Positions 29,267-40,240 of a stretch of DNA of 64,000 nt are shown here, one piece after another (the first letter of the stretch is position 1; the number at the start of each line of letters is the position of its first letter). The stretch lies in IMG/VR virus record IMGVR_UViG_3300021440_000014, positions 108,011-172,010 of that record. The stretch is one strand, 5' to 3'. The notes beneath the pieces were generated by a model. The model worked only from the letters and a program-made list of their open reading frames with translations, ran no database searches and was not told the DNA's origin. A program made the translations under genes and the position numbers. Origin of the DNA: a virus.

Positions 29267-29845
29267 TCAATTTGGGTTAGTATGATGATCGTTTAATTCC
29301 GGTATAGAGCAATTAATAGGTTTAGCATCCATAATTGTCTTTATTTCCTCAAAAGAGTAAGGCTCGAAACTGTTTCCATCGACACCAACATCTAAAATTT
29401 TACCTAAAACCTTACCTTCCTTGCGGACTCCCGCCATTCCATAGTGGCTGTGTCCGCACAAGCACCATGCGGAATGATGTTTTTTGTTCCATGTAACTTG
29501 AGCATAATGGTTTAAAGTTATGTCTTGATCGTTAATTTTAATCTCATGATATCCTTTATGGGCTGAATAAAACTTATGACGATTCCTCCAAGTCAATTTA
29601 TCATGATTGCCTGAGACTAAAACAATCAAACCGTTCAGTCTTTGAAAGAACATGTCAAACTCCATATCGTTTCTTCCAAAGACAAAATCCCCCAAAAAAT
29701 ATGCTAAATCTTGTTTACCTACTTTTTTATTCCATCTTTCTATAATTGCTTCATTCATTTCTACAACATTCTTGAAGGGACGGTTAGAATAGCGCAAAAT
29801 GTTACTATGATTAAAATGGAAATCCGAACTGAAAAACACTTTCAT
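29267..29845 (-). CDS. Calcineurin-like metallophosphoesterase
   Basis: 192 aa. SDFHFNH, LGDFVFG, SGNHDK and CGHSHYG are the ordered metal-binding motifs of this superfamily. Size matches small phage and bacterial phosphoesterases (MPP type). Substrate unknown; could act on RNA-end phosphates. Confidence 0.85.
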   Translation of the reverse strand: MKVFFSSDFHFNHSNILRYSNRPFKNVVEMNEAIIERWNKKVGKQDLAYFLGDFVFGRNDMEFDMFFQRLNGLIVLVSGNHDKLTWRNRHKFYSAHKGYHEIKINDQDITLNHYAQVTWNKKHHSAWCLCGHSHYGMAGVRKEGKVLGKILDVGVDGNSFEPYSFEEIKTIMDAKPINCSIPELNDHHTNPN

Positions 29846-29891
29846 ATATATAATTCCATCTTAACATATTTTTATTTTCTGTCAAAGAAAA

Positions 29892-29984
29892 TCAAGATAC
29901 TTTCAATTTATACGGTATTTTATTCCTCCGCTCTATTTTTATGTCTTCACGACTCGCTATGACAGACGTTTTTATAGCGGGCAT
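29892..29984 (-). CDS. Possible 30-aa basic peptide
   Basis: MPAIKTSVIASREDIKIE..., ending KLKVS, preceded by AGGGAG 5 nt before the ATG, one of few Shine-Dalgarno-like sites here. Very short, so tentative. Confidence 0.25.
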   Translation of the reverse strand: MPAIKTSVIASREDIKIERRNKIPYKLKVS

Positions 29985-30083
29985 CGCCGCTCCCTTTTAT
30001 CAGGTTTTGTTCGCCTTATTTGGCTTCATGTGTTAATTATGTTATTGCTGCTGTAAGTATCTTACTCTTAATTACACTAAAAC

Positions 30084-30182
30084 TAGAAGCTGATTTACAG
30101 TTTACTCTGGGCACTTTTTGTGTGATTACCGTCACGATGAAGCCGGATTACCGGCGTTTATTTTTTTTGCTGTAAGCTTCTA
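30084..30182 (-). ncRNA. Structured RNA with 13-bp base stem
   Basis: TAGAAGC and TTACAG at the 5' side pair with CTGTAA and GCTTCTA at the 3' side, interrupted by a 4-nt bulge. The interior has GCCGG-TAAT-CCGGC. Just downstream of tRNA-Cys. Unassigned small RNA. Confidence 0.4.
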
Positions 30183-30188
30183 AAAATC

Positions 30189-30263
30189 TGGAAGCACGTA
30201 TCAGAATTGCACTGATCTATTCGATTTTGCAGATCGACGCCTAATCTACTCGGCCAACGCGCT
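30189..30263 (-). tRNA. tRNA-Cys (GCA)
   Basis: Acceptor AGCGCGT/ACGTGCT, T73 (typical of tRNA-Cys), CCA encoded. D-arm GCC-GAGTAGATTA-GGC, anticodon arm TCGAT-CTGCAAA-ATCGA, T-arm ATCAG-TGCAATT-CTGAT. Elbow AG/GC instead of GG/TC. Confidence 0.9.
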
Positions 30264-30451
30264 ATTAAATTGGTGACTAATAAATCATTATAGCTGCTAC
30301 CACACCCCAATATTAAAGTGTTTTTGCCTTATTTAAAGTGTCCTACACTCACTATAACTTACTTAAGTTGGTATCCCTTGACGGTTTTGCGCCGTCGTCT
30401 CGGACTTGAGAGGCCCGCGATTTACTATTAATCTAAAGGGACATTAAAATG
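30264..30451 (-). other. RNA-rich spacer, unresolved
   Basis: About 190 bp without a frame. Hairpins GACGG-CGCAAAA-CCGTC, AACTT-AAGT-AAGTT and GGTG...CACC are visible but no tRNA could be folded with confidence. Confidence 0.35.
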
Positions 30452-30805
30452 TCAATTTTCCCAAAATTTGTTTTCGTAATTTTCCATCTCTTTTCTCCAA
30501 TTCTGTTCGATTATAGCCATTTTATCGTCTAACTCTTTATTTCTTTTAACTATAATTTCAGGAGTTAGAGTTTTTGCGAATTTTACTGTTTCATTAAAAT
30601 CTAAACTTAGATAAGGATGCATTGCATCACTAAGTCTAGGATCTCCTGTAAAGAAAATTCCACTTCTAAAGAGTGCCCATTTGTCTTTCTCTTTGAATTT
30701 ATACTCTATACAGTAATATTTTGCATTGTAATGACTTACTCTTACTCTAAATTTATCTTGTATATTCTCTGGCTTTGCTTTGAATTTTTTAAAAAATTTG
30801 AACAT
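30452..30805 (-). CDS. Hypothetical protein
   Basis: 117 aa, basic N-terminus then a mixed fold (RVRVSHYNAKYYCIEYKFKEK). Not recognised. Starts directly downstream of tRNA-His. Confidence 0.5.
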   Translation of the reverse strand: MFKFFKKFKAKPENIQDKFRVRVSHYNAKYYCIEYKFKEKDKWALFRSGIFFTGDPRLSDAMHPYLSLDFNETVKFAKTLTPEIIVKRNKELDDKMAIIEQNWRKEMENYENKFWEN

Positions 30806-30808
30806 AAA

Positions 30809-30883
30809 TGGTCAGGTGGGTCGGTTACGCTCCGACTCAATTTCATTCACAGTGAAAGAGGCTACTATTACATCACGCACTTG
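30809..30883 (-). tRNA. tRNA-His (GTG), weak acceptor
   Basis: Anticodon arm TTTCA-CTGTGAA-TGAAA, T-arm GTCGG-AGCGTAA-CCGAC, CCA encoded. The acceptor CAAGTGC/CCACCTG has only five pairs and the D-stem is unclear. Elbow AG/GC. Confidence 0.7.
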
Positions 30884-30886
30884 TTT

Positions 30887-31261
30887 TTAATTATAAAACT
30901 CTACTTCAACCCCAAGCTTCTTAAAATTGTTCTTAATGGCTTTTTCTTTTTGTTCATCTGAGGTATTCTCGTTATCATTAATTTCCATTAAACGATTTGC
31001 AATTTTCGAATTTCCATTTAGACTGCACAGTTCAGGAAGCATATAAGCTTCGTTCTCTTTAACTAGGTCCGAAGGCTCGTATTTATTTTCAATATATTTT
31101 TTATTAATTCCTCGCGCCAATGAGTAAAACCCAAGGCAGCATTTCATACCTTTGCAGTCCAACAGTTCCGCTTCATAGCTAAAATCAGTATGCTTACCTT
31201 TTTGGAAGCGCATCCACTCTTTACGGTTAATTCTAAATTTCTTAATTGGAGATTTTTTCAT
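30887..31261 (-). CDS. Hypothetical protein
   Basis: 124 aa from the ATG at 31261 (MKKSPIKKFRINRKEW). Contains CKGMKCCLGFYSLARG, a pattern frequent in phage proteins of unknown role. A good promoter lies 7 nt upstream. Confidence 0.55.
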   Translation of the reverse strand: MKKSPIKKFRINRKEWMRFQKGKHTDFSYEAELLDCKGMKCCLGFYSLARGINKKYIENKYEPSDLVKENEAYMLPELCSLNGNSKIANRLMEINDNENTSDEQKEKAIKNNFKKLGVEVEFYN

Positions 31262-31268
31262 ATAGTAG

Positions 31269-31296
31269 AGATTAACACATTTTTGAAGAATGTCAA
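31269..31296 (-). promoter_or_regulatory. Sigma70-type promoter, leaderless start for 31261 gene
   Basis: Minus strand TTGACA, 16-nt spacer, TAATCT, then 7 nt to the ATG. Confidence 0.65.
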
Positions 31297-31550
31297 TTCG
31301 ATTCTCTATAGGGCGCAAACTGTAATTTGTTAGATTCAAATTTTAAATAATTAGAGTATTTTGAAATACCCAAATCAACAGTAACAGAATTAAAAGTATT
31401 GGCAGTTTCTTTACTTTCTAAAACTTCCATTCTTTTTTCCATTTCCCTAATTAAAGCCTTATTTATCCAATTCATTTCTATTAAAATGTAGGTAGAAGAA
31501 GCAAAAACTAATAAAGCCATTAAACTTAATGAAGTTTCGTATTTTATCAT
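31293..31550 (-). CDS. Small TM protein with coiled coil
   Basis: 85 aa: one membrane helix (LSLMALLVFASSTYILIEM) then a short coiled coil (LIREMEKRMEVLESKE). Not recognised. Confidence 0.5.
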   Translation of the reverse strand: MIKYETSLSLMALLVFASSTYILIEMNWINKALIREMEKRMEVLESKETANTFNSVTVDLGISKYSNYLKFESNKLQFAPYRESN

Positions 31551-31584
31551 ATTGACATTATCTATATTTTATCCATAAAGTCAA

Positions 31585-31612
31585 TAAAAAACGGCAGATT
31601 TCTCTGCCGTTC
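31585..31612 (-). terminator. Terminator after 31635 gene
   Basis: Minus strand ACGGCAGA-GAAA-TCTGCCGT then TTTTTT; a GNRA loop stem. Confidence 0.85.
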
Positions 31613-31634
31613 GCTAATATAATTGAATTTGCTA

Positions 31635-32303
31635 TTATCTAAATTTATAATCTACATTAATCGCAATATAATTATTTTTGCCTGTTACGTTTTGCGGCGT
31701 ATTGTAATTAATAAATGGAGAATCACTATATCCAGTATAAGAAATAAATCTCATTCTTGGCGAAGCGGCAGTGTTTAAATGAGAGCCGGAATGTAGAATT
31801 TTAGTTCCTATCTCGAAAAAGAGAGAATCTCCATCATTCGCCATTCCTGTTCCTACAATCCCATTAAAGTATTGTAGTCTATAGCCCTGAGAATCATATT
31901 TTGAAAAATGAGAGGTATCACTCTGATCGCCAGAATACAAAACTTTTCTTAAATTTCCGCTCTGGTCGCAAACTTTAATAACTAAAGAATTACAGTGCCC
32001 GCTATTTATACCTGTTGGGCCTTTTGGAATGAAATATCCAGTAAAAATACCAGAATTCAAAAATTGAGAGCCGCTAAATACTTTATTGTATTTAAATACT
32101 GATGCAATTATCCTTTTATTAATGTCCTGCCCTGTATTTACAGGATGAAAAATTAACCTCTCAACTCCCGTTGTCGTCGATGGACTTGAATAGCAATCGT
32201 ATTTTAAGTTTGCTCCACCTGTGTAATACCAAAAGCTGTTTGGCGCAGAATAATTTTCATTTCCGCTTATTAGATTTTCGGAAAAATATATTTTAGTGCT
32301 CAT
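31635..32303 (-). CDS. Possible virion structural protein
   Basis: 222 aa, beta-rich with many S, G, Y and N (FWYYTGGANLKYDCYSSPS...), no signal peptide. Compositionally like tail or fibre proteins and it has its own terminator. Not recognised by family. Confidence 0.45.
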   Translation of the reverse strand: MSTKIYFSENLISGNENYSAPNSFWYYTGGANLKYDCYSSPSTTTGVERLIFHPVNTGQDINKRIIASVFKYNKVFSGSQFLNSGIFTGYFIPKGPTGINSGHCNSLVIKVCDQSGNLRKVLYSGDQSDTSHFSKYDSQGYRLQYFNGIVGTGMANDGDSLFFEIGTKILHSGSHLNTAASPRMRFISYTGYSDSPFINYNTPQNVTGKNNYIAINVDYKFR

Positions 32304-32349
32304 ATCACTAATTAATACACTAACTCTTGAGTTTTATTCGTTTTTTTAA

Positions 32350-32424
32350 TGGCAGGCATGAAAGGACTTGCACCTTTTTATAATCGCTTCAGAGGCGATC
32401 CGATAACTATTCTCGCACATGCCA
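32350..32424 (-). tRNA. tRNA-Gln (CTG)
   Basis: Acceptor TGGCATG/CATGCCT with T1.T72 mismatch, G73 as in Gln, CCA encoded. D-arm CGA-GAATAGTTA-TCG, anticodon arm ATCGC-CTCTGAA-GCGAT, T-arm AAAGG-TGCAAGT-CCTTT. Elbow AG/GC. Confidence 0.88.
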
Positions 32425-32425
32425 A

Positions 32426-32677
32426 TCAAAAATTCTTCAAATAAGGTTTAATATGTTTTGGTGTTTTCTGGTTTATTAATTTAGGATTCGTTTCCAAAAT
32501 TAACTTTTGCCCACTTTTAGTTTTCTTGAGCTTTTTAAGAATTACTTCTGCTGTTAAATCGCACCCATCAATATGGATTTTACTTCCCTTTCTGTCGCTC
32601 GGATCTAATAACTGCATTGTTCGGGCGGCTCTATACAATTGATTCATCGCCCAATTTAGTAATTCTTCGTCATTCAT
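32426..32677 (-). CDS. Hypothetical protein
   Basis: 83 aa. NDEELLNWAMNQLYRAARTMQ is helical; KIHIDGCDLTAEVIL follows. Not recognised. Ends 2 nt after tRNA-Gln begins. Confidence 0.5.
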   Translation of the reverse strand: MNDEELLNWAMNQLYRAARTMQLLDPSDRKGSKIHIDGCDLTAEVILKKLKKTKSGQKLILETNPKLINQKTPKHIKPYLKNF

Positions 32678-32694
32678 AATTCACCTCAATATAT

Positions 32695-32895
32695 TTAACA
32701 CCAATCCGTTTTCCCTGTCAGCATATCCTTTAGTCTTTTCGCTGACTCTGCCGCGTCTTCTCTGGTTGGAATCCTTAGTCCAGCAAAGATACTTCCCTCT
32801 GGAAATGGCGTTAATCCTTCGTAAGGATTTTCTTCTGGAATATGAATCGGCTCCTTAGTAACCGAATCAATAAGTATTGTCTTATGTGTTTTCAT
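32695..32895 (-). CDS. Hypothetical protein
   Basis: 66 aa, proline-rich centre (EENPYEGLTPFPEGSIF). Not recognised. Overlaps the upstream gene. Confidence 0.5.
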   Translation of the reverse strand: MKTHKTILIDSVTKEPIHIPEENPYEGLTPFPEGSIFAGLRIPTREDAAESAKRLKDMLTGKTDWC

Positions 32896-33124
32896 TTTTA
32901 CTCTCTATTTTAACGCATTCGTATTTGTCTGTTAGTAAGCTAGTTATATTTGAAATTAACTCTGAGCGAACAACCCATTCATCAATTTCAATTCCGCTAG
33001 GTGGGTTTTTTATAAAGTCTGCCTCAACAATCTGCGCAGCCTCAATAACAGAATCCGCCAAGATTCTATAATTCATTCTCTCTATCTTGCTTATATCTTT
33101 AGAACATATTTTATCTGTTTCCAC
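32882..33124 (-). CDS. Hypothetical protein
   Basis: 80 aa, mainly helical, NYRILADSVIEAAQIVEADF. Not recognised. Confidence 0.5.
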   Translation of the reverse strand: METDKICSKDISKIERMNYRILADSVIEAAQIVEADFIKNPPSGIEIDEWVVRSELISNITSLLTDKYECVKIESKNENT

Positions 33125-33169
33125 GATATATAACCCAAAACTTTTGCTATATTTATATTCTTTCGTAAA

Positions 33170-33658
33170 TCAAATACTATAATCTTCTCCTTTAAATTGG
33201 TAATCTTTAATAAACTCAACCACTGAAGGTTCCAGTTCTACTCTATGACATATAGGATAAGAATACTCTATATTATGAGATTTTACCCCATTGAATACTA
33301 ATTTTTTTCCCTTGTCATTAGTTTTCATGTATCTATAGATTTCGTTTATCCATCTTTTACATCTTTCGACTTTATCAGAAGAATTCGCAAACTGAATCCA
33401 ATTTTCCCCATGATTTACTCCATAACCCTCGGAAAGGCATTCAAACACTCCTTGTAAATACGCGATTTTCTTTTCAATCGTATCGAAAAACTCTTCTTTG
33501 AGTTTACCAGTTATACGTCCTGCCGTAAATCCTTCTCGGCCCGGTGGACTCCAATTAAATATATCGTAGTAATCTGGCTTTTCTTTACTGTTATCATGGA
33601 AAGGAGTATCGTAAAAATCTCCCGCCTGAGCCGCTGATTTGATTGCTTTGACATTCAT
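33170..33658 (-). CDS. Hypothetical protein
   Basis: 162 aa, KKIAYLQGVFECLSEGYG and a charged C-terminus. Not recognised. Confidence 0.5.
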   Translation of the reverse strand: MNVKAIKSAAQAGDFYDTPFHDNSKEKPDYYDIFNWSPPGREGFTAGRITGKLKEEFFDTIEKKIAYLQGVFECLSEGYGVNHGENWIQFANSSDKVERCKRWINEIYRYMKTNDKGKKLVFNGVKSHNIEYSYPICHRVELEPSVVEFIKDYQFKGEDYSI

Positions 33659-33677
33659 AAATTAGAAACACCCAACC

Positions 33678-33857
33678 TTAATCACGTTTAATAAGGTAGT
33701 CAGTCATTTCTGCTTCGGTGGTGCGGCTGTTAGAGTCCCGTCCGGGGTAGTTGTTAAACTTAGTCTTCATTCTAAATATATCATATTGAAGAAAGCCAAT
33801 TATTAGCCACATTATGATTAATAAAATTACTAATACTTTAAATTTTAGATCTTTCAT
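33678..33857 (-). CDS. Small single-TM protein (59 aa)
   Basis: KVLVILLIIMWLIIGFLQYD is a membrane helix; the soluble tail reads YPGRDSNSRTTEAEMTDYL. It fills the stretch between two other small genes, and the hairpins seen in this DNA are therefore coding. Confidence 0.55.
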   Translation of the reverse strand: MKDLKFKVLVILLIIMWLIIGFLQYDIFRMKTKFNNYPGRDSNSRTTEAEMTDYLIKRD

Positions 33858-33903
33858 GTTAAATTAATTACCAAACATTCGTCGCCGCATATTTTCTATA
33901 TTG

Positions 33904-34119
33904 TTATTCAAGCGGTTGCGGTTTCTCGCATTCTTGTCCACCCTCAACAGGGGATTGTTTGGTAAAATTACTTTTTATTGCCTCCTCCCAAAAACAACAA
34001 TAAAATTTATTTAAATCCTTTTTAAAAGGATCTCTATGGTTAATTATTCCCATGTCACATGCGTTTGTTCCGTTTTTGAAATAAACCCTAAACTTGCAAT
34101 TAGTGCAATTCTTGTCCAT
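33904..34119 (-). CDS. Small zinc-binding protein
   Basis: 71 aa. CTNCKFRVYFKNGTNACDMG then CCFWEEA: four cysteines fit a zinc site. Leaderless promoter upstream. Confidence 0.55.
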   Translation of the reverse strand: MDKNCTNCKFRVYFKNGTNACDMGIINHRDPFKKDLNKFYCCFWEEAIKSNFTKQSPVEGGQECEKPQPLE

Positions 34120-34125
34120 TAATTT

Positions 34126-34153
34126 AATATAGATTATATTTTATATATGTCAA
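34126..34153 (-). promoter_or_regulatory. Sigma70-type promoter, leaderless start for 34119 gene
   Basis: Minus strand TTGACA, 16 nt, TATATT, then 6 nt to the ATG. Confidence 0.7.
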
Positions 34154-34160
34154 GTTAAAT

Positions 34161-34241
34161 TGGCCCCGGCGATAGGATTTTCACCTACATTTTCAGATAA
34201 TTACGATTAAAACCTTCAAAGGGTTCCTCGTCTACACCGGA
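34161..34241 (-). tRNA. tRNA-Gln (TTG), D-loop relocated
   Basis: Acceptor TCCGGTG/CGCCGGG, G73 and CCA. Directly after TA comes a stem ACGA that pairs with TCGT located after the anticodon arm GAACC-CTTTGAA-GGTTT. The 14-nt linker AATTATCTGAAAAT then leads to T-arm GTAGG-TGAAAAT-CCTAT. No D-arm in the usual place. The linker AT and T-loop GA match the altered elbow code. Confidence 0.7.
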
Positions 34242-34310
34242 TTTGATCATTCGCCCTGCTCACACACGTAAACTTACAAACTGGCAATACAGCTTAGGGC
34301 TACTAAAATG
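34242..34310 (-). other. Spacer with GCCCT/AGGGC stem
   Basis: A 5-bp stem GCCCT...AGGGC encloses 46 nt with GTAA-GT-TTAC. No tRNA could be folded. Confidence 0.3.
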
Positions 34311-34382
34311 TGGGTTAGTTCGGTACTGCCCCGAACTCTCTCAGCTTAAGAGGCTGGACTTCGCTTTCAAAGTTTCTAACCC
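34311..34382 (-). tRNA. tRNA-Lys (CTT)
   Basis: Acceptor GGGTTAG/CTAACCC, D-arm ACTT-TGAAAGCG-AAGT, anticodon arm CAGC-CTCTTAA-GCTG, T-arm TTCGG-GGCAGTA-CCGAA. CCA not encoded. Elbow AG/GC. Confidence 0.85.
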
Positions 34383-34460
34383 ATGAAAAAATTAGTGAGA
34401 GGAATTGAAAAATCAAGATGCTATTCCGCCCCCTCTCAGGGATTTTTATTAACTGTAGGC
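34383..34460 (-). other. Hairpin TGAGAGG/CCTCTCA with T-run
   Basis: A perfect 7-bp stem with a 33-nt interior containing GCGGAATAGCA, followed by CTAATTTTTT. Could be a terminator or a tRNA remnant. Confidence 0.4.
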
Positions 34461-34470
34461 GTCTTTAAAG

Positions 34471-34551
34471 TGGTGGGCAAGGAGGGATTTGAACCCTCAT
34501 TTTATTCCAATTATGCACCCATCGCTTAGAAGGCGCGGCCATTACAAGCCC
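34471..34551 (-). tRNA. tRNA-Arg (TCT), D-loop relocated
   Basis: Acceptor GGGCTTG/CTTGCCC (two T.T mismatches), A73, CCA. Anticodon loop CTTCTAA on a short CGC/GCG stem follows TAATGGC; ATG..C pairs with G.GCAT after the arm. Then AATTGGAATAAAAT and a canonical T-arm GAGGG-TTCAAAT-CCCTC. GG in the linker matches T-loop TC. Confidence 0.65.
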
Positions 34552-34568
34552 AAAATTATGTAACTCAT

Positions 34569-34598
34569 TTACTATGTCTTCTTTTTCTAAAATGTCAA
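34569..34598 (-). promoter_or_regulatory. Promoter for tRNA-Arg (TCT)
   Basis: Minus strand TTGACA, 18 nt, TAGTAA, lying between the 34603-34624 terminator and the tRNA. Confidence 0.5.
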
Positions 34599-34602
34599 AT
34601 TC

Positions 34603-34624
34603 TAAAAACTAGAACCAATTCTAG
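34603..34624 (-). terminator. Terminator upstream of tRNA-Arg (TCT)
   Basis: Minus strand CTAGAA-TTGG-TTCTAG then TTTTTAG. Confidence 0.8.
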
Positions 34625-34833
34625 GTCAGCCCTGCGCTATGGGTGCCTTGTATTGCAATACCGCTTAGTTCCCCATAGACTACTTATTAAAAAATAAGTA
34701 ATACGGGCATTCCGCCCGCCATCGGATTCTCGCACCGACCCAATCGATTTTCAACCATAATTTTCAGTCTTTCGGCTTTCGCTTCCTGATCCGTTGTGGT
34801 CTGGTCTACTCCTTTTTTGATTCTAGTTAAAAT
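34625..34833 (-). other. Structured RNA region, unresolved
   Basis: 209 bp without a gene. Contains CTATGGG...CCCATAG with GTATTGCAATAC inside, TACTTATT-TTTT-AATAAGTA, CGGGC-GGAAT-GCCCG and a T-arm-like TCGG-TGCGAGAAT-CCGA that precedes it. The last two could be another inside-out tRNA but the fold is incomplete. Confidence 0.35.
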
Positions 34834-34909
34834 TGGTGCTGCCGAAAGGAATCTCACCTTCAGTCTTCTCCTTCGTAGGGAGTGGCTTTAATAATTTAGC
34901 TACGACAGC
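34834..34909 (-). tRNA. tRNA-Arg (ACG)
   Basis: Acceptor GCTGTCG/CGGCAGC, A73, CCA. D-arm GCT-AAATTATTAA-AGC, anticodon arm CTCC-CTACGAA-GGAG, T-arm GAAGG-TGAGATT-CCTTT. Elbow AT/GA (T19-A56). Confidence 0.85.
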
Positions 34910-35043
34910 ATTAAATAGTTTTCTGAGGATTTCACAAGGCGATATCCAACGGGGTTCTACCGTCTTTTAAGCTCGCTCAGTTCCCCTTTTTCCTGCGGTA
35001 ATTAAGGAGTCTATCTCATTCCACTAGGTTAACCGAAATTTTA
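34910..35043 (-). other. Spacer with GGGG...CCCC stem, unresolved
   Basis: 134 bp without a frame. GGGG(AACT...AGAA)CCCC and short hairpins visible; no tRNA identified. Confidence 0.3.
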
Positions 35044-35247
35044 TTATTGACTTATCATCCAATCTGGTATTGAATCTTCATTTGTCATTAGCCAAGCAAA
35101 ATCCTCTTCAAAAGAGTATAGGTAATTTTGATTTAATGTCCTGTGCTTGGCTCTAAAAACTGTTCTTCCTTTATGTAAAAACGGCTTACCTCTAAACTCA
35201 AGACAGAGGAACCTTTGTTTTATTTCCTCTGAGATGTTATTGTTCAT
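35044..35247 (-). CDS. Hypothetical protein
   Basis: 67 aa from the ATG at 35247 (MNNNISEEIKQRF). Basic; not recognised. Starts 11 nt downstream of tRNA-Arg (CCT). Confidence 0.5.
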   Translation of the reverse strand: MNNNISEEIKQRFLCLEFRGKPFLHKGRTVFRAKHRTLNQNYLYSFEEDFAWLMTNEDSIPDWMISQ

Positions 35248-35257
35248 AAATTTAAAT

Positions 35258-35337
35258 TGGTGCATCTGATAGGATTTGAACCTACATTATTCCAATTATA
35301 CGCTAAACTCTTTAGGAAAGAGTGCTATTACAGATGC
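35258..35337 (-). tRNA. tRNA-Arg (CCT), D-loop relocated
   Basis: Perfect acceptor GCATCTG/CAGATGC, A73, CCA. TAATAGC is followed at once by anticodon arm ACTCT-TTCCTAA-AGAGT; ATAGC pairs with GC(G)TAT on the 3' side. Then AATTGGAATAAT and canonical T-arm GTAGG-TTCAAAT-CCTAT. Clearest example of the moved D-loop: GG sits 3' of the anticodon arm. Confidence 0.75.
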
Positions 35338-35341
35338 ATTT

Positions 35342-35418
35342 TGGTTCGGGATACACAGCCTTTCACTGTTGCACAACGTAGTCATGAGCTACGGCGTCTA
35401 TACTTGCGCCAATCCCAA
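35342..35418 (-). tRNA. tRNA-Met or Ile2 (CAT)
   Basis: Acceptor TTGGGAT/ATCCCGA, A73, CCA. D-arm GCG-CAAGTATAGA-CGC, anticodon arm CGTAG-CTCATGA-CTACG, T-arm ACAG-TGAAAGG-CTGT. Elbow AT/GA. Initiator, elongator or Ile cannot be told apart by sequence alone. Confidence 0.8.
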
Positions 35419-35419
35419 A

Positions 35420-35731
35420 TTATTTTAAACTATTATGCAAAGATTTTTCTACCCATTTAGGAGAAGCATCTAATACGTCTTGTATTTCGCTTTTCACTAA
35501 GAGTTCATCTTTTATATCCTCGCTCCACATTTTGATAGTTAGATTAACTAAACTTTTGCCCCATATAGCCCTTTGAACTGTTATAGGATCTTTGCAGGTA
35601 ACTTCTTTTACTACAGACCTACCGTAAGTATCATAAAGATAATAACATTCTTTTGGATCAAGTCCATTAGAATCTAACTTAAAGTAACACATGCATAGAT
35701 AATGTCTTACTTCTTTCTCTGTATATTTCAT
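35420..35731 (-). CDS. Hypothetical protein, possibly longer
   Basis: 103 aa from the first ATG. The same frame continues upstream with coherent protein-like sequence (KYDTAKRNIKIPKEFSQKF) but lacks a standard start; a nearby ATG after AGGAG is one base out of frame. Either a rare start, an indel or an mRNA read through from tRNA-Tyr. Confidence 0.5.
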   Translation of the reverse strand: MKYTEKEVRHYLCMCYFKLDSNGLDPKECYYLYDTYGRSVVKEVTCKDPITVQRAIWGKSLVNLTIKMWSEDIKDELLVKSEIQDVLDASPKWVEKSLHNSLK

Positions 35732-35842
35732 TAAATAGTTCCACTCTTCTTCAAATTTTTGAGAGAACTCTTTTGGTATTTTTATATTGCGTTTAGCTGT
35801 GTCATATTTTCTTACTCCTGTTTTTTTTTGTTTTTACTAAAT

Positions 35843-35930
35843 TGGTGGTGCCGGTTGGATCTGCCCCAACTATTCCATAAGAATTACGAGATTTACAGTC
35901 TCGCGCCTGATCTAATTTGGCTTCGTCACC
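35843..35930 (-). tRNA. tRNA-Tyr (GTA)
   Basis: Class II. Acceptor GGTGACG/CGGCACC (one A.G), D-arm GCC-AAATTAGATCA-GGC, anticodon arm CGAGA-CTGTAAA-TCTCG, variable arm ATTC-TTAT-GAAT, T-arm GTTGG-GGCAGAT-CCAAC, A73, CCA. Elbow AG/GC. Confidence 0.88.
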
Positions 35931-35943
35931 TTAAAATAAATTC

Positions 35944-36000
35944 GAACAAGAAACCCCTCTGATGTCCATAGGCGTAATGTCACATACTCATTTCTTGTTC
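35944..36000 (-). ncRNA. 57-nt RNA closed by 10-bp stem
   Basis: GAACAAGAAA pairs perfectly with TTTCTTGTTC. Lies back to back with the next element, both between tRNA-Tyr and a small gene. Confidence 0.4.
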
Positions 36001-36002
36001 TC

Positions 36003-36060
36003 AACACTTAACTTCTCCATTCTTACTCCCGCCACTTCAGTTTGGCCCTATTTAAGTGTT
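36003..36060 (-). ncRNA. 58-nt RNA closed by 9-bp stem
   Basis: AACACTTAA pairs perfectly with TTAAGTGTT; 40-nt interior rich in G and A. Ends at the stop codon of the 36061 gene. Confidence 0.4.
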
Positions 36061-36255
36061 TTAAATTACTTGGAAATCTAAATGCATTTTAAAGGATACT
36101 TTTAGTTCCGTAGGTATCCAACCATCTAATACTTTAATTTGAGATAAAGAATACGTTGTATAAAAAACTTCTCCATAAGTTAGAAAAGATTTGTCTTCCA
36201 CTATTTTTCCTGTTAAAGTTTTGAATTTATTGTCTTTTTTTAGAGTATACCACAT
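36061..36255 (-). CDS. Hypothetical protein
   Basis: 64 aa from the ATG at 36255 (MWYTLKKDNKF); an earlier ATG would lie inside tRNA-Thr. Not recognised. Confidence 0.5.
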   Translation of the reverse strand: MWYTLKKDNKFKTLTGKIVEDKSFLTYGEVFYTTYSLSQIKVLDGWIPTELKVSFKMHLDFQVI

Positions 36256-36265
36256 ATTTTTAAAA

Positions 36266-36333
36266 TGGAGCCACACACGATATCGCAATCGTCACGCCTT
36301 ATTACGAGTAAGGACTAGGTGCTTACGTGCGGC
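36266..36333 (-). tRNA. tRNA-Thr (CGT), reduced D-arm
   Basis: Acceptor GCCGCAC/GTGTGGC, T73, CCA. Anticodon arm CCTTA-CTCGTAA-TAAGG, T-arm ACGAT-TGCGAT-ATCGT with a 6-nt loop. Only 13 nt (GTAAGCACCTAGT) stand for the D-arm. Confidence 0.7.
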
Positions 36334-36335
36334 AG

Positions 36336-36396
36336 AAGAGGATCTGAAAATTAATTCAGTTTACAATGATTGGACCCATGTTTTCTTGACCTCTTT
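36336..36396 (-). ncRNA. Small hairpin RNA AAGAGG/CCTCTT
   Basis: A 6-bp closing stem with an inner CTGAA-TTAATT-TTCAG hairpin, between two tRNAs. No tRNA features. Confidence 0.3.
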
Positions 36397-36399
36397 AAA

Positions 36400-36475
36400 T
36401 GGCGAGCTATGAGGGAGTCCCACCCTCTTAATTTCCGCAGACAACGGAATGATTCCAGTCTTCATCTTATAGCCC
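36400..36475 (-). tRNA. tRNA-Asp (GTC)
   Basis: Acceptor GGGCTAT/ATAGCTC, G73 typical for Asp, CCA. D-arm GAT-GAAGACTGGA-ATC, anticodon arm TTCCG-TTGTCTG-CGGAA, T-arm GAGGG-TGGGACT-CCCTC. T-loop GG pairs with D-loop AC (C19-G56). Confidence 0.85.
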
Positions 36476-36493
36476 ATAAATTTTATTACTTAA

Positions 36494-36700
36494 CTAACTA
36501 ATCTCAAGTGTTTTAAAGTCATAAAAACAAAATGTAACGTCTTTAACCTCATCAATAGACGTTAGATGATGATAAAACCTTTTATCTGATTCTTTTGATT
36601 TTTCTCTTACATAATTTAGATGAAAGACCTTTCCGCATACGGTATATATTTCCGTAACTAAATCTTCTCTCCATATTATGTTTTTAACTTCATACTTCAT
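36494..36700 (-). CDS. Hypothetical protein
   Basis: 68 aa, mixed alpha/beta, no motif. Not recognised. Confidence 0.45.
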   Translation of the reverse strand: MKYEVKNIIWREDLVTEIYTVCGKVFHLNYVREKSKESDKRFYHHLTSIDEVKDVTFCFYDFKTLEIS

Positions 36701-36781
36701 ACATATTAGATTATCTAATCGCTTTTTGCCTCACGTTATTGTTAACGTCTATATCCATTCGCGTTTTGGATTCGATGTAAA

Positions 36782-37087
36782 TTATTCTTTATCTAAAATA
36801 AAACTCTCTTCTTCGTTTTTACCAACAAACTCAATACAATCATTCAGTAATTCAATTAGTTGCTCTTTCTTAAGCTTTAATGTAACCCATCCATTCAAAT
36901 GTTTTGTATCTATGGCTAATACTGTTATTTTACAGCCGTCTTGCTCTTCGAAATCTAATAAAGCCGCCGTTACGAATCCAGATAAACCAAAGCTTTTAGA
37001 ATTTTTATTAAATAATAAACCCATTCCTCTCAATTGCTCGAAGCTCTCAAAAGAGTTGATTATATCTGATATTTTCTTTTTTTTCAT
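36782..37087 (-). CDS. Hypothetical protein
   Basis: 101 aa. KITVLAIDTKHLNGWVTLKLKKEQLIELL at the C-terminal half suggests a small alpha/beta fold. Not recognised. Confidence 0.5.
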   Translation of the reverse strand: MKKKKISDIINSFESFEQLRGMGLLFNKNSKSFGLSGFVTAALLDFEEQDGCKITVLAIDTKHLNGWVTLKLKKEQLIELLNDCIEFVGKNEEESFILDKE

Positions 37088-37130
37088 GTAAAAGATTACT
37101 ACATTTTTTTAAAAAAATCAAGAGGATTTC

Positions 37131-37360
37131 ACACGTAGTTCCTAATTCAGCGTCCGGTTACGCTCCGAATCTTCTGAGCCGCGCCAGCTTGCTTCTATCA
37201 CAACCCGCTAGTTAGTCTATCTCTCATTTCTAGAAATATTCCTGCGCTGTTTTTACGCCGACAGGTAGCGGCTTGGGATCACTTCTACCAAGCTCATGGA
37301 CTTCATGAATATTACATTGTCCACTTTTTCAACCGATTTCACGGTTAAGATTTTTAAATT
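37131..37360 (-). other. RNA-rich region, partly tRNA-like
   Basis: A T-arm TTCGG-AGCGTAA-CCGGA of the AG/GC class lies at about 37150-37170 but its tRNA body could not be completed. Further hairpins: GCTTGG...CCAAGC, CCTG...CAGG, ATTTCTAGAAAT. Confidence 0.35.
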
Positions 37361-37364
37361 CTAT

Positions 37365-37423
37365 TAGACAGATGGACCTCGAACCCATTTCGACACATAT
37401 CGAACAGCCAGCCTTGCTGTCTA
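37365..37423 (-). ncRNA. 59-nt mini tRNA-like RNA
   Basis: Perfect acceptor TAGACAG/CTGTCTA and a canonical T-arm ATGGG-TTCGAGG-TCCAT, but only 28 nt replace the D-arm and anticodon arm: CAAGGCTGGCTG and hairpin TTCGA-TATGTG-TCGAA. No standard 7-nt anticodon loop. Confidence 0.5.
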
Positions 37424-37426
37424 AAA

Positions 37427-37486
37427 TTAATTTGCTCCTCAGTGCTTGCTTTTGCACGTTGCCGCTTTTGACTTGGAGCATTTAGC
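37427..37486 (-). other. Hairpin TGCTCC/GGAGCA
   Basis: 6-bp stem with inner GTGC...GCAC; between mini tRNA-like RNA and tRNA-Ser. Confidence 0.3.
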
Positions 37487-37490
37487 TAAA

Positions 37491-37577
37491 TGGCGGATAA
37501 GTTAGGTGCTGCCCCCAATTCCCGTAGGAACGATGAGTTTTCAAGACTCTCACGAAAGCTGTTTCGTTTACTTATCC
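37491..37577 (-). tRNA. tRNA-Ser (TGA)
   Basis: Acceptor GGATAAG/CTTATCC, G73, CCA. D-arm CGAAA-CAGC-TTTCG, anticodon arm GAGT-CTTGAAA-ACTC, variable arm TTCC-TAC-GGAA, T-arm TTGGG-GGCAGCA-CCTAA. The 5' end overlaps the HNH gene stop by 10 bp. Elbow AG/GC. Confidence 0.85.
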
Positions 37578-38332
37578 TTTAAAATTTTATATCTTTTTTG
37601 CCAAAAGCCGGGATAAAACCATTTTATACCAAGACTTTTTAAATGCTTTCTTAATCCTGTATGGCTACAACCTAATTCATCCTTTATTTTTTCCAAGGAT
37701 TTTTCTTGAACCATTTTTTCTAAAATTTCCTTATCTGGCCAATTAATAATCTTTTGAATTTTACGAGTCTCTATCCCTTCGGCTATTAATCTTTTCATAA
37801 CTCCAGAAGGAGAACATCCAACAATTTTCGCAATTTGTATGGTAGATTTCTTTTGTATTAAATATAAATCTTTAAGATCAAATTTAGACCAATCGTATTT
37901 GCCTTTCAAACTCAAAGCGCAAAACGTAGAACAAGTTTTATTCCAAAAAGGTTTTTCTTTATTACAAATAGGACAATTATTTATCATTGACTTAGATTTA
38001 TCAATTAATTCTATCCTTTTGTAGTCTACAAAAGATTCATTAAATCTACTTATGGAATCTGGAATAATTCTTAAATTATCGTGGACTTCTCTATGACAAT
38101 TAGAACATAATAATACGCATTTTCTTAATTCTATTACTAAATCTTGCCAATTTTTAGGGTTTGCTCTTATAGAACCAAAGCTAAACTCTTTTTCGCTGGG
38201 ATCTAAATGATGTAGTTCTAATGCGTTATTACATTTATTATAATCACAAGTTCCGCATTTACCGCCAAATGCATCTATTATTCTTTGTTTGCTTCTTTTA
38301 CGCCAATTTTTAACATCTTCCGCTCTGCTCAT
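37568..38332 (-). CDS. HNH endonuclease overlapping tRNA-Ser
   Basis: 254 aa. N-terminal HNH: GKCGTCDYNKCNNALELHHLDP, LCSNCHREVH (zinc-bound). A CPICNKEKPFWNKTCSTFC finger follows, then two helix-turn-helix repeats (IQIAKIVGCSPSGVMKRLI; KIKDELGCSHTGLRKHLKSL). Its last codons K-D-K and stop lie in the acceptor of tRNA-Ser. Confidence 0.85.
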   Translation of the reverse strand: MSRAEDVKNWRKRSKQRIIDAFGGKCGTCDYNKCNNALELHHLDPSEKEFSFGSIRANPKNWQDLVIELRKCVLLCSNCHREVHDNLRIIPDSISRFNESFVDYKRIELIDKSKSMINNCPICNKEKPFWNKTCSTFCALSLKGKYDWSKFDLKDLYLIQKKSTIQIAKIVGCSPSGVMKRLIAEGIETRKIQKIINWPDKEILEKMVQEKSLEKIKDELGCSHTGLRKHLKSLGIKWFYPGFWQKRYKILKDK

Positions 38333-38368
38333 ACTTTATGTTACACTTATCATGTAACATATAGAAAT

Positions 38369-38444
38369 TGGCTGCTAGAACTGGATTCAAACCAGTATCG
38401 ACGATCTTAACAGGATCGGGAATTATCAATTATTCGATCTAGCA
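38369..38444 (-). tRNA. tRNA-Asn (GTT)
   Basis: Acceptor TGCTAGA/TCTAGCA, G73, CCA. D-arm GAAT-AATTGATA-ATTC, anticodon arm CGATC-CTGTTAA-GATCG, T-arm ACTGG-TTTGAAT-CCAGT. Elbow GA/TT, i.e. A19-T56 instead of G-C. Confidence 0.9.
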
Positions 38445-38451
38445 TTTAAAT

Positions 38452-38531
38452 TGGTGCAAGTGGTGGGTAACGCTCCCACACGAATAGTCTGGTTAAAAGC
38501 CAGTTGGACGTACTTTGGTACCTTCACTTGC
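38452..38531 (-). tRNA. tRNA-Lys (TTT)
   Basis: Acceptor GCAAGTG/CACTTGC, A73, CCA. D-arm GTAC-CAAA-GTAC region, anticodon arm CTGG-CTTTTAA-CCAG, T-arm GTGGG-AGCGTTA-CCCAC. Elbow AG/GC. Confidence 0.85.
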
Positions 38532-38540
38532 ATAAATAAC

Positions 38541-38595
38541 ATGAATGTTTTGAAGTCCGTCTAAACTTCGTCGGACGGGACACATTATCATTCAC
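38541..38595 (-). ncRNA. Small RNA with possible pseudoknot
   Basis: GTGAATG/CATTCAT closes it; inside GTCCG pairs with CGGAC while GAAG in the loop can pair with the following CTTC, an H-type pseudoknot. Between tRNA-Lys and tRNA-Ile. Confidence 0.4.
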
Positions 38596-38600
38596 TAAAA

Positions 38601-38674
38601 TGGTAGCCTATGCCGGTAACGCTCCGACGAAGCAATCTTATCAGGATTGTATTATACTTTTTAATTAATAGGCT
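38601..38674 (-). tRNA. tRNA-Ile (GAT)
   Basis: Acceptor AGCCTAT/ATAGGCT, A73, CCA. D-arm ATT-AAAAAGTAT-AAT, anticodon arm CAATC-CTGATAA-GATTG, T-arm GTCGG-AGCGTTA-CCGGC. Elbow AG/GC. Confidence 0.9.
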
Positions 38675-38685
38675 ATAAAAATTAA

Positions 38686-38786
38686 TTGAGCACTAAAGCG
38701 AATACCCAAAAGGTCTAACTTTAGAATATTCAATTGGAGAGACTCGTCCTTCATTAGCCGCCGCCTTCGATGGGCACGTTGCTCAA
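38686..38786 (-). ncRNA. 101-nt RNA closed by TTGAGCA/TGCTCAA
   Basis: 7-bp closing stem and inner CTAAAG...CTTTAG stem with 20-nt loop. No recognisable anticodon arm. Between tRNA-Ile and tRNA-Leu. Confidence 0.4.
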
Positions 38787-38788
38787 AT

Positions 38789-38874
38789 TGGTAGCCGTAA
38801 AAGGACTTGCACCTTCAAGTATTAGAAGATTTTAAGTCTCCCGGTTCTTCGTTTCCCTTTCAATACATACGGCC
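38789..38874 (-). tRNA. tRNA-Leu (TAA), unusual variable helix
   Basis: Acceptor GGCCGTA/TACGGCT, A73, CCA. Anticodon arm GGAGA-CTTAAAA-TCTTC, T-arm GAAGG-TGCAAGT-CCTTT. No class II variable arm; instead GTAT after the acceptor can pair with ATAC in the variable region. Elbow AG/GC. Confidence 0.8.
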
Positions 38875-38875
38875 A

Positions 38876-39082
38876 TTAAAGATCTAAAAGTTTCAAAGCT
38901 TTAAGAAGTAACTTACTTCCCTTTTTCTTTTTCTCTCTATCAGTCAGACTTTCTTTTAGTTTCGACTTAGGAAGATATTCGTCTCCAGCCCAATTATAAA
39001 TTTTTGCCTTTTCCCAATTTGTAGCTTCTTCTTTTAATATTTCTATAACAATCTTTTTTATTTTAACTTCTAGTTGGTTCAT
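38876..39082 (-). CDS. Hypothetical basic protein
   Basis: 68 aa, lysine-rich, helical; LTDREKKKKGSKLLLKALKLL. Not recognised. Inserted between tRNA-Leu genes. Confidence 0.45.
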   Translation of the reverse strand: MNQLEVKIKKIVIEILKEEATNWEKAKIYNWAGDEYLPKSKLKESLTDREKKKKGSKLLLKALKLLDL

Positions 39083-39086
39083 AAAA

Positions 39087-39170
39087 TGGTCGCCATGACA
39101 GGAATCGCACCTGCAAAACTTCAGTTTTTGAAACTGGATGCTGTCCTATTCGCAATTAAGTCACATGGCG
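39087..39170 (-). tRNA. tRNA-Leu (CAA), unusual variable helix
   Basis: Acceptor CGCCATG/CATGGCG, A73, CCA. D-arm TGC-GAATAGGACA-GCA preceded by an extra ACTTAAT; ACTT can pair with AAGT in the variable region. Anticodon arm CAGT-TTCAAAA-ACTG, T-arm GCAGG-TGCGATT-CCTGT. Confidence 0.82.
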
Positions 39171-39177
39171 TTTTAAA

Positions 39178-39252
39178 TGGTAGGGTTAGCCGGATCTGCC
39201 CCGCGCCTCTATAGGATGAAAGCCTATTATGCTTCTACTGCACCATAACCCC
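39178..39252 (-). tRNA. tRNA-Glu (TTC)
   Basis: Acceptor GGGGTTA/TAACCCT, A73, CCA. D-arm GTGC-AGTAGAA-GCAT, anticodon arm ATAGG-CTTTCAT-CCTAT, T-arm with one bulged G and loop GGCAGAT. Elbow AG/GC. Confidence 0.87.
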
Positions 39253-39259
39253 TGAAAAA

Positions 39260-39380
39260 CTAGATACATTTTTTTGCTTGTCGGACGTTTTGCCACTAAA
39301 CTACCCACGTCAATGACGTGGACACGAATCGAACGTGCGCTTTCCGATTGGATTTGCTTTTTGTCTGCTGGATGTATCTA
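39260..39380 (-). ncRNA. Inside-out tRNA in a TAGATAC hairpin (copy a)
   Basis: Outer stem TAGATACAT/ATGTATCTA. Inside, in 5'-3' order: TCCAA, TCGGA, AAGC, T-arm GCACG-TTCGATT-CGTGT, CCACGTC, ATT, GACGTGG, D-arm GTTT-AGTGGCA-AAAC, G, TCCGA. So 3' half precedes 5' half and the acceptor ends are joined by an ATT triloop. TCCGA/TCGGA makes a perfect anticodon stem and TCCAA would supply a TCC (Gly) anticodon. GG matches the canonical T-loop. Confidence 0.55.
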
Positions 39381-39384
39381 AAAA

Positions 39385-39459
39385 TGGTAGCCCGTGAAGG
39401 AATCGCACCCTCTCTTCTTCCTTGTAAGGGAAGCTCGCTCCTGTTACAATCAACGGGCT
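39385..39459 (-). tRNA. tRNA-Val (TAC)
   Basis: Acceptor AGCCCGT/ACGGGCT, A73, CCA. Anticodon arm CTTCC-CTTACAA-GGAAG, T-arm GAGGG-TGCGATT-CCTTC. D-arm weak (ATTG...CGAG) with AG. Elbow AG/GC. Confidence 0.88.
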
Positions 39460-39464
39460 ATAAA

Positions 39465-39539
39465 TGGTCAGCACGAAAGGTAACGCTCCTTCTTGAACTT
39501 GATCCCAAATCAAGTGCCTCACTTTTAGGCTACGTGCTG
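39465..39539 (-). tRNA. tRNA-Pro (TGG)
   Basis: Acceptor CAGCACG/CGTGCTG, A73, CCA. D-arm GCCT-AAAAGTG-AGGC, anticodon arm CTTGA-TTTGGGA-TCAAG with G37, T-arm GAAGG-AGCGTTA-CCTTT. Elbow AG/GC. Confidence 0.92.
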
Positions 39540-39684
39540 TATAAAGTTTCAGGTCTTTCCTTGTGTCAATCATCATCGGGTTGGTTTCCAACTTACGGAG
39601 CGATTTGCCGCTAGATGTTCTAAATTATTAGAGTATGCAGCGATTATGCTATCATACCCTTCTAAGAGTTTTTATTACTCAAGA
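39540..39684 (-). other. Spacer with hairpins, no gene
   Basis: 145 bp. GTTGG-AAA-CCAAC, AGCG-GCAAAT-CGCT and GGGTATG...CATACTC hairpins are visible; no tRNA could be folded. Confidence 0.3.
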
Positions 39685-39756
39685 TGGTGGACCTGTCGGA
39701 TACTGCCTCCGAACGAAAATCTTGCAAGGATTCCCTTATGCCTTCATAACAAGCCC
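39685..39756 (-). tRNA. tRNA-Ala (TGC)
   Basis: Acceptor GGGCTTG/CAGGTCC (two wobbles), A73, CCA. D-arm ATG-AAGG-CAT, anticodon arm GAATC-CTTGCAA-GATTT, T-arm TCGGA-GGCAGTA-TCCGA. Elbow AG/GC. Confidence 0.87.
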
Positions 39757-39761
39757 ATAAA

Positions 39762-39974
39762 TTACTTATAACTATTTCCCAACTTCTCCCTCCAATTTTC
39801 ATTATAATTTTGATGCGCTTCACATTGAGCTTTTGCTTGCTCTAAAGTGATAGCTGGCTGTTTTTTGACAGCCTCCATTGTATCAATTAACCATTTAGGA
39901 GGAGGAGGAATCCTATTCATTAACTCTTTAAATCTTCTAAGATGTTTTCTTTTTCTTTTTTCGAAATTGATCAT
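39762..39974 (-). CDS. Hypothetical basic protein
   Basis: 70 aa, basic helix (EKRKRKHLRRFKELMNRI) then PPPPKW. Not recognised. Confidence 0.45.
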   Translation of the reverse strand: MINFEKRKRKHLRRFKELMNRIPPPPKWLIDTMEAVKKQPAITLEQAKAQCEAHQNYNENWREKLGNSYK

Positions 39975-40170: not shown

Positions 40171-40240
40171 CAACAAATTGGATTTGCGCCAACTTCCTCG
40201 GCGTTTGCCGATGCTTTACTACATAAGCTATTTATGTTGC
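40171..40240 (-). ncRNA. tRNA-like RNA with tetraloop instead of anticodon
   Basis: D-arm GCTT-ATGTAGTA-AAGC and T-arm GTTGG-CGCAAAT-CCAAT carry the AG/GC elbow, but the anticodon stem TCGGC/GCCGA is capped by AAAC only. Acceptor is short (CAACA/TGTTG). Could be a decoy that keeps the elbow but cannot decode. Confidence 0.45.

What the first reader, a model, noticed from the sequence alone, without database searches (positions are those of the whole stretch)
34161..35337. Three tRNAs with the D-loop moved to the 3' side of the anticodon arm
In Gln-TTG (34161-34241), Arg-TCT (34471-34551) and Arg-CCT (35258-35337) the anticodon arm begins only 7-8 nt after the acceptor. The strand before it (ACGA, ATG..C, ATAGC) pairs with a strand just after it (TCGT, G.GCAT, GC-G-TAT), so D-stem and anticodon stem form one extended helix. 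The D-loop-like segment (AATTGGAATAAT in both Arg; AATTATC in Gln) then precedes the T-arm. The GG or AT in that segment matches the T-loop (TC or GA) by the same elbow code as in the other tRNAs. Topologically the order acceptor, D, anticodon, T has become acceptor, D5', anticodon, D3', D-loop, T. I know of no described tRNA like this.
Basis: partly seen in the sequence, partly recalled or inferred. Interest (0 to 1): 0.93.

Follow-up and report, generated by a model that had tools for sequence, protein, structure and literature searches.

The report
Phage tRNAs with a relocated D-loop
Some phages, including cultured phages of E. coli, Pseudomonas and Vibrio, carry genuine-looking tRNAs (mostly for arginine) in which one standard part, the D-loop, sits on the other side of the anticodon arm, so the classic cloverleaf is re-wired; the same structure recurs in dozens of tRNA genes with matching mutations in paired bases.

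Summary
Confirmed. On the minus strand of a 172-kb phage contig, tRNA-Arg(CCT), tRNA-Arg(TCT) and tRNA-Gln(TTG) have the anticodon arm 7-8 nt after the acceptor; the D-loop lies between anticodon arm and T-arm. Database scans gave 78 distinct tRNAs with this order (71 Arg, 4 Ile, 2 Met, 1 Gln) plus a class II-like Tyr group. The relocated D-stem covaries strongly (92% of cells paired in register, 22-38% when slid; 0 of 50,000 shuffles reach the observed score). The ArgRS determinant A20 is kept in 71/71 Arg members (30/30 in the unbiased subset) and in 0/7 others. Elbow pairs 18-55/19-56 and Levitt pair 15-48 are kept. ARAGORN misses those tested; in the cultured phages examined (PA11, Boevelstad, ManiMatter_Bas94, Vibrio D375) they are unannotated. 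No description was found in the open-access literature held here. Most likely they are working elongator tRNAs with a new chain topology. Why phages use it is inferred only, perhaps evasion of tRNA-cutting defences. No RNA was measured.

The parts
35258..35337 (-). tRNA-Arg(CCT) with displaced D-loop; acceptor GCATCTG/CAGATGC, encoded ACCA end
   Evidence: Rfam RF00005 34.5 bits
35307..35323 (-). Arg(CCT) anticodon arm ACTCT-TTCCTAA-AGAGT, only 7 nt after the acceptor
35324..35330 (-). Arg(CCT) T8-A9 and D-stem 5' strand (TAATAGC)
35298..35306 (-). Arg(CCT) junction and D-stem 3' strand TTA-GC-G-TAT (one-base bulge)
35286..35297 (-). Arg(CCT) displaced D-loop AATTGGAATAAT (A14 A15 .. G18 G19 A20)
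34471..34551 (-). tRNA-Arg(TCT) with displaced D-loop; acceptor GGGCTTG/CTTGCCC with two T-T mismatches; 3-bp anticodon stem also seen in relatives
   Evidence: Rfam 26.8 bits, below gathering
34521..34537 (-). Arg(TCT) anticodon arm CGCGC-CTTCTAA-GCGAT
34499..34512 (-). Arg(TCT) displaced D-loop and linker AATTGGAATAAAAT
34161..34241 (-). tRNA-Gln(TTG) with displaced D-loop; encoded GCCA end; found by neither ARAGORN nor Rfam
   Evidence: 60.8 bits, E=1e-11 with model R1
34210..34226 (-). Gln(TTG) anticodon arm GAACC-CTTTGAA-GGTTT
34227..34234 (-). Gln(TTG) T8-A9 and D-stem 5' strand TAGACGAG; TAG can also pair with CTG of 34189-34202
   Evidence: by analogy
34189..34202 (-). Gln(TTG) displaced D-loop AATTAT, basal-helix strand CTG and linker AAAAT

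Best explanation
These are working elongator tRNAs with a rearranged chain order. The 5' strand runs acceptor, U8-A9, (basal helix), D-stem 5' strand, anticodon arm; the chain then returns through the D-stem 3' strand, the D-loop and the T-arm. D-stem and anticodon stem form one extended arm. The D-loop, now a bulge on its 3' side or the connector to the T-arm, still docks on the T-loop through 18-55 and 19-56 and pairs 15 with 48, which should keep an L-shape and present A20 to arginyl-tRNA synthetase. Shown by sequence comparison: arm order, covarying helices, elbow and Levitt pairing, A20 retention. Inferred: expression, charging and use on the ribosome (AGA, AGG and CAA codons here). Also inferred, and weaker: the topology is kept because it escapes host factors, such as tRNA-cutting defence nucleases, that read the normal D-arm, anticodon arm or variable loop.
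For: 78 distinct tRNAs share the order; D-stem 133/144 cells paired in register versus 22-38% slid by 1-3; 17 distinct strand combinations give 46/51 pairs versus 28.1 (sd 2.8) shuffled, 0 of 50,000 reaching it. On 25 gap-free members the structure is 96.3% paired, covariation score 0.804 versus 0.209 shuffled; RNAalifold finds it unprompted, 21 of 25 pairs compensated. R10-Y48 is G-C 13, A-U 11, C-G 1. A20: 71/71 Arg, 0/7 others; subset not found through its own D-loop 30/30 versus 0/7, Fisher p=1e-7. Canonical Arg tRNAs of the same loci have A20 in 100/101, other tRNAs 13%; A20 is the main determinant for E. coli ArgRS (PMC9976931). Position 15 with the base before the T-stem: A-T 73, G-C 3, other 2. 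The elbow code holds in about 89-98% of 1290 ordinary tRNAs and is followed here in three states. In loci up to L149 none holds the same anticodon in both forms; in L071, 26 ARAGORN tRNAs include no Arg and the displaced one supplies it. AGA+AGG are 74% of Arg codons in the window's larger ORFs.
Against: No expression, charging or structure data exist. Single-sequence folding recovers the whole structure in only 22 of 78, against 175 of 300 ordinary tRNAs by a similar test. The window's Arg(TCT) has a weak acceptor and anticodon stem, and the same genome has an ordinary tRNA-Arg(TCT) elsewhere (G000:C1:88677-88750). Part of the sample was found with patterns that contain the D-loop, so conservation of that motif there is by construction.
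Confidence: 0.82

Rival explanations
1. They are tRNA-shaped decoys or regulatory RNAs (sponges for a tRNA nuclease or for ArgRS) that are not used in translation.
For: Phage tRNAs can counter tRNA-cutting defences (PMC11555353, PMC13096335); the own genome has an ordinary Arg(TCT) as well.
Against: Anticodon, U33, purine 37, CCA encoded in most members, A20 and elbow code are all kept, and anticodons match codon demand. A pure decoy would not need synthetase identity and decoding features at once. Not excluded.
Confidence: 0.1
2. They are decaying pseudogenes or deletion products of ordinary tRNAs.
For: The window's Arg(TCT) has acceptor mismatches and few anticodon-stem pairs.
Against: Compensatory changes in all helices and recurrence in phages of different hosts, including the weak Arg(TCT) anticodon stem.
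Confidence: 0.03
3. D-armless tRNAs with an extended anticodon stem and a long variable segment; the D-loop-like motif in that segment is coincidence and does not dock on the T-loop.
For: The secondary structure alone can be described this way; D-armless mitochondrial tRNAs exist (PMC7609411).
Against: The motif AA..GGA, three matched elbow states, A20 restricted to Arg, and 15-48 covariation (A-T/G-C) all sit in the displaced segment.
Confidence: 0.04
4. The topology is real and functional but a neutral architectural variant, with no link to escape from host factors. (Shares the structure of the best explanation and differs only in the reason; its confidence is about the reason.)
For: Nothing here shows selection by a nuclease; in several loci the other tRNAs are canonical (L071, L168).
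Against: It recurs in diverse phages, and in the cellular genomes scanned with two patterns the hits kept were a prophage or metagenome-bin contigs, which suggests a phage-specific benefit.
Confidence: 0.35

Closest known systems
Canonical cloverleaf tRNA-Arg (A20-type, bacterial)
   Same: 7-bp acceptor, CCA, T-arm, 7-nt anticodon loop, A20, 18-55/19-56, 15-48
   Different: No D hairpin between positions 8 and 26; D-loop lies 3' of the anticodon arm; D-stem encloses the anticodon arm; often an extra basal helix 8-11/47-50
D-armless metazoan mitochondrial tRNA-Ser
   Same: Short connector between acceptor and anticodon arm
   Different: Those lose the D-arm elements; here they are kept on the other side, with a covarying D-stem and identity base
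tRNA-Sec, tRNA-Pyl and mitochondrial tRNA-Ser(UCN) with altered stem lengths
   Same: Non-standard core or longer stems
   Different: Arm order is the normal one in all of them (review PMC7609411)
Circularly permuted tRNA genes (algae, archaea)
   Same: Rearranged order of tRNA segments
   Different: In those the gene is permuted and the mature RNA is normal (PMC3978253, listed; details from own knowledge); here the ends lie at the acceptor and the mature RNA itself has the new order
Phage tRNAs that resist defence nucleases (T5, mycobacteriophages)
   Same: Phage-encoded, structurally divergent tRNAs
   Different: Known cases change anticodon-loop or variable-loop bases or dosage (PMC10264068, PMC11555353, PMC13096335), not the topology

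Membership tests
Transfer RNA (general) | 7-bp acceptor stem plus discriminator and CCA end | tested here: met
   Helix 1 is 98.3% paired in 25 members; CCA encoded in the window's three, not encoded in some relatives such as L152 and L160
Transfer RNA (general) | 7-nt anticodon loop with U33 and purine 37 on a 5-bp stem | tested here: met
   U33 and R37 were required by the scan; stem pairs 90-100% for 28-31, 65% for 27-43
Transfer RNA (general) | T-arm with 7-nt loop docking on the D-loop (18-55, 19-56) | tested here: met
   Dinucleotide code followed in all 78 parsed members, three states; general code; docking itself not measured
Canonical cloverleaf tRNA | D hairpin (10-25) between acceptor and anticodon arm | tested here: not met
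   Only 7-8 nt there in all members
Canonical cloverleaf tRNA | Variable region of 4-5 nt or a class II hairpin | tested here: not met
   18-32 nt holding D-stem 3' strand and D-loop
tRNA-Arg | A20 in the D-loop with C35 and U/G36 | tested here: met
   71/71 A20; 30/30 unbiased
tRNA-Arg | Aminoacylation by ArgRS | not testable with these tools
   needs biochemistry
D-armless mitochondrial-type tRNA | Loss of D-stem and D-loop elements | tested here: not met
   Both kept, displaced
Circularly permuted tRNA gene | 3' half encoded upstream of the 5' half | tested here: not met
   Acceptor strands are at the two ends in the normal order

The most novel reading that the evidence does not exclude
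A second natural solution to the tRNA fold: the same L-shape, elbow and identity code reached by a different chain topology, in class I (Arg, Ile, Met, Gln) and class II-like (Tyr) versions, used by phages to carry tRNAs that host tRNA-targeting immunity does not recognise.
Probability: 0.4. Interest if true: 0.97.

Novelty: new variant of a known kind. Interest (0 to 1): 0.92.

Why it matters
The order acceptor, D-arm, anticodon arm, T-arm is treated as universal in annotation tools, structure models and origin theories of tRNA. A covarying natural family with another order shows that elbow, L-shape and synthetase identity can be separated from the cloverleaf. It also means that tRNA finders miss a class of phage tRNAs, including in cultured phages of E. 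coli and Pseudomonas where the idea can be tested directly.

Tried and rejected
Pseudogene decay was rejected by covariation. A chance match was rejected by shuffles and by the independent model. A normal D-arm is not possible in 7-8 nt. Single-sequence minimum-energy folding was tried as a test and is uninformative (22/78 displaced, 175/300 canonical). A MAFFT alignment of all subtypes (A1) puts the 7- and 8-nt connectors out of register, so counts were made on a gap-free subset (A2) and by script. In genome contigs the TGGC-type pattern found nothing; a looser pattern found 15 stretches, most of which are not displaced tRNAs by the scan; one is a prophage in Limoniibacter endophyticus (L178: terminase, tape measure) and the others kept (L168, L171, L177) are metagenome bins. 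A first parse of the D-loop in the script mis-set five members and was corrected. Cas12a3 was considered as a selective agent, but the paper describes contacts to T-arm and CCA tail, so it would not explain a D-loop change.

Full report
WHAT IS THERE. The window is positions 108011-172010 of a 172-kb IMG/VR virus record. It looks like a tailed-phage genome, with ligase, PIF1-like helicase, tail-associated and vWA proteins and a tmRNA. Between about 29,000 and 42,000 the minus strand carries a dense array of divergent tRNA genes. ARAGORN finds 10, and an arm-by-arm scan finds 23 at a score of at least 34, while three shuffled windows never exceed 32.5. Among them, Arg(CCT) 35337->35258 and Gln(TTG) 34241->34161 have 7-8 nt between acceptor and anticodon arm and 21 nt between anticodon arm and T-arm. 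Arg(TCT) 34551->34471 has the same order (7 and 22 nt) but weaker stems.

RELATIVES. A pattern for the unusual T-loop AGCGTTA of other tRNAs in the array, which says nothing about the displaced class, fetched 119 stretches from viral contigs. Those loci held displaced Arg tRNAs in many contigs, and a Tyr group. Patterns containing the displaced D-loop added more, and blastn of single tRNAs against cultured phages added named hosts. Displaced tRNAs occur in Pseudomonas phages PA11, TC6, IME180 and vB_PaeM_Ty (Paundecimvirus) and Boevelstad, in Maribacter phage Panino, in Vibrio phages D375 and 1.101.O, and in the E. coli phage ManiMatter_Bas94. None is annotated as a tRNA in those records, and ARAGORN finds none of the displaced genes in the loci tested. 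A prophage of Limoniibacter endophyticus has one.

STRUCTURE. In total 78 distinct displaced tRNAs were parsed: Arg 71 (TCT 40, CCT 11, ACG 10, TCG 8, GCG 2), Ile 4, Met 2, Gln 1. Two layouts occur. In one (30 members, including both Arg tRNAs here) the D-stem is TGGC/GY-G-CA or a variant, with a one-base bulge. In the other the D-stem is three pairs, with 17 different strand combinations such as CGA/TCG, CCC/GGG, CAG/CTG, CAC/GTG, CTC/GAG, ACC/GGT and TCC/GGA. In register 133 of 144 cells pair; slid by one to three bases, 22-38% pair. Re-dealing the 3' strands among the distinct combinations never reached the observed 46 of 51 in 50,000 trials. On 25 equal-length members the whole structure is 96.3% paired with a covariation score of 0.804 against 0.209 for shuffles. 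RNAalifold, given no structure, returned the same arms plus a basal helix joining columns 8-11 to 47-50, with pair 10-48 as G-C 13, A-U 11 and C-G 1, and pair 11-47 as C-G 20, U-G 4, A-U 1. Gln here fits it with TAG/CTG (read from the sequence). The D-loop is thus an 8-nt bulge of a roughly 12-bp arm in this layout. A Tyr(GTA) group has a 6-bp D-stem with seven different sequences that all pair, and lies within a class II-like variable stem.

TERTIARY CODE AND IDENTITY. In 1290 ordinary tRNAs of the same loci the T-loop bases 55-56 predict D-loop 18-19: TC with GG 98%, GC with AG 98%, TT with GA 89%, TA with GT 95%, GA with AT 90%, GG with AC 89%. The displaced loops follow this in three states: TC/GG, GC/AG (L033, L045) and GA/AT (window Gln). 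Position 15 and the base before the T-stem are A-T 73, G-C 3, other 2. A20, the main determinant for E. coli ArgRS (PMC9976931), is present in 100 of 101 ordinary Arg tRNAs and 13% of the others. It is present in all 71 displaced Arg and absent in all 7 displaced non-Arg. In the 37 members not found through their own D-loop it is 30 of 30 against 0 of 7, p=1e-7. The Gln loop is two bases shorter, so its position 20 is not strictly defined.

MODEL CHECK. A covariance model from the 25 members, none from this window, gives the window's three 60.8, 44.2 and 43.0 bits as the only strong hits in the window. Ordinary tRNAs mostly score below about 36, though a few unexamined hits (L026 at 40.6, L125 at 41.6) overlap the low end.

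HOW IT PROBABLY WORKS. The acceptor/T stack and CCA are normal, so processing by RNase P and CCA enzyme and EF-Tu binding are expected (inference from established tRNA biology). The extended arm has about as many stacked layers as D-stem, core and anticodon stem have in a normal tRNA, so the anticodon-to-CCA distance can be preserved (inference; no 3D model was made). A20 and C35 would let ArgRS charge the Arg members. They would serve AGA and AGG, 74% of Arg codons in the window's larger open reading frames, and Gln(TTG) would serve CAA. In the loci up to L149 none carries the same anticodon in both normal and displaced form, and in L071 a nearly complete ordinary set lacks Arg except for the displaced gene. 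This genome is an exception at whole-genome level: an ordinary Arg(TCT) lies at 88677-88750.

WHY. Host defences cut tRNAs at the anticodon or variable loop, and phages answer with altered or extra tRNAs (PMC10264068, PMC11555353, PMC13096335). [quoted passage not shown] This is suggestive only; nothing here tests it.

LIMITS. No RNA was measured. Literature was limited to open-access PMC without preprints. The D-loop motif, T8-A9 and parts of the basal-helix 3' strand were fixed in some search steps, so their invariance there is by construction. D-stem sequence, anticodon, position 10 and acceptors were not fixed. Single-sequence folding does not discriminate.

Noticed in passing
window 29000-42000 minus strand and loci L011-L149: An elbow code: D-loop bases 18-19 and T-loop bases 55-56 covary across 1290 phage tRNAs in six states (GG/TC, AG/GC, GA/TT, GT/TA, AT/GA, AC/GG), so many phage tRNAs abandon G18G19/TPsiC.
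   Followed up: partly
window 29000-42000 minus strand: The divergent array covers nearly every amino acid (all but possibly His by the scans), while a second cluster at G000:C1:88552-90384 holds ordinary Met, Arg(TCT), Leu and Lys tRNAs: two structurally different tRNA sets in one phage.
   Followed up: partly
loci L029, L033, L039, L053, L060, L067, L068, L083: A class II-like tRNA-Tyr(GTA) with the same displacement: 6-bp covarying D-stem around the anticodon arm, D-loop (AAGT or TGGT) inside a variable-arm stem, elbow code AG/GC or GG/TC.
   Followed up: partly
window 39260-39380 minus strand: Looks like a circularly permuted tRNA: T-arm GCACGTTCGATTCGTGT, then CCACGTC-ATT-GACGTGG (3' and 5' acceptor strands joined by 3 nt), then a D-arm, all inside a hairpin TAGATACAT..ATGTATCTA.
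   Followed up: no
window minus strand about 41520-41460, 41060-41000, 40835-40770, 40763-40700, 30190-30080: Repeated hairpin-flanked elements between tRNAs: TTTAGATAC(N)2CAGCA ... GTATCTAG, with compensating stem changes (TAGATCC/GGATCTA, TAGATAG/CTATCTA, TAGAAGCT/AGCTTCTA); no Rfam family at gathering threshold.
   Followed up: no
window 44227-45807 and 42194-43195 minus strand: DUF2828/DUF7788 vWA RNA-binding protein (phrog_850, annotated Ro-like in mycobacteriophages) next to the tRNA array; 42194-43195 is another vWA protein with best match in Mycobacterium phage Phabba.
   Followed up: partly
L178:176-252: A displaced tRNA-Arg(TCT) with D-stem CGG/CCG in a prophage of the isolate Limoniibacter endophyticus KCTC 42097, beside terminase and tape measure genes.
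   Followed up: partly
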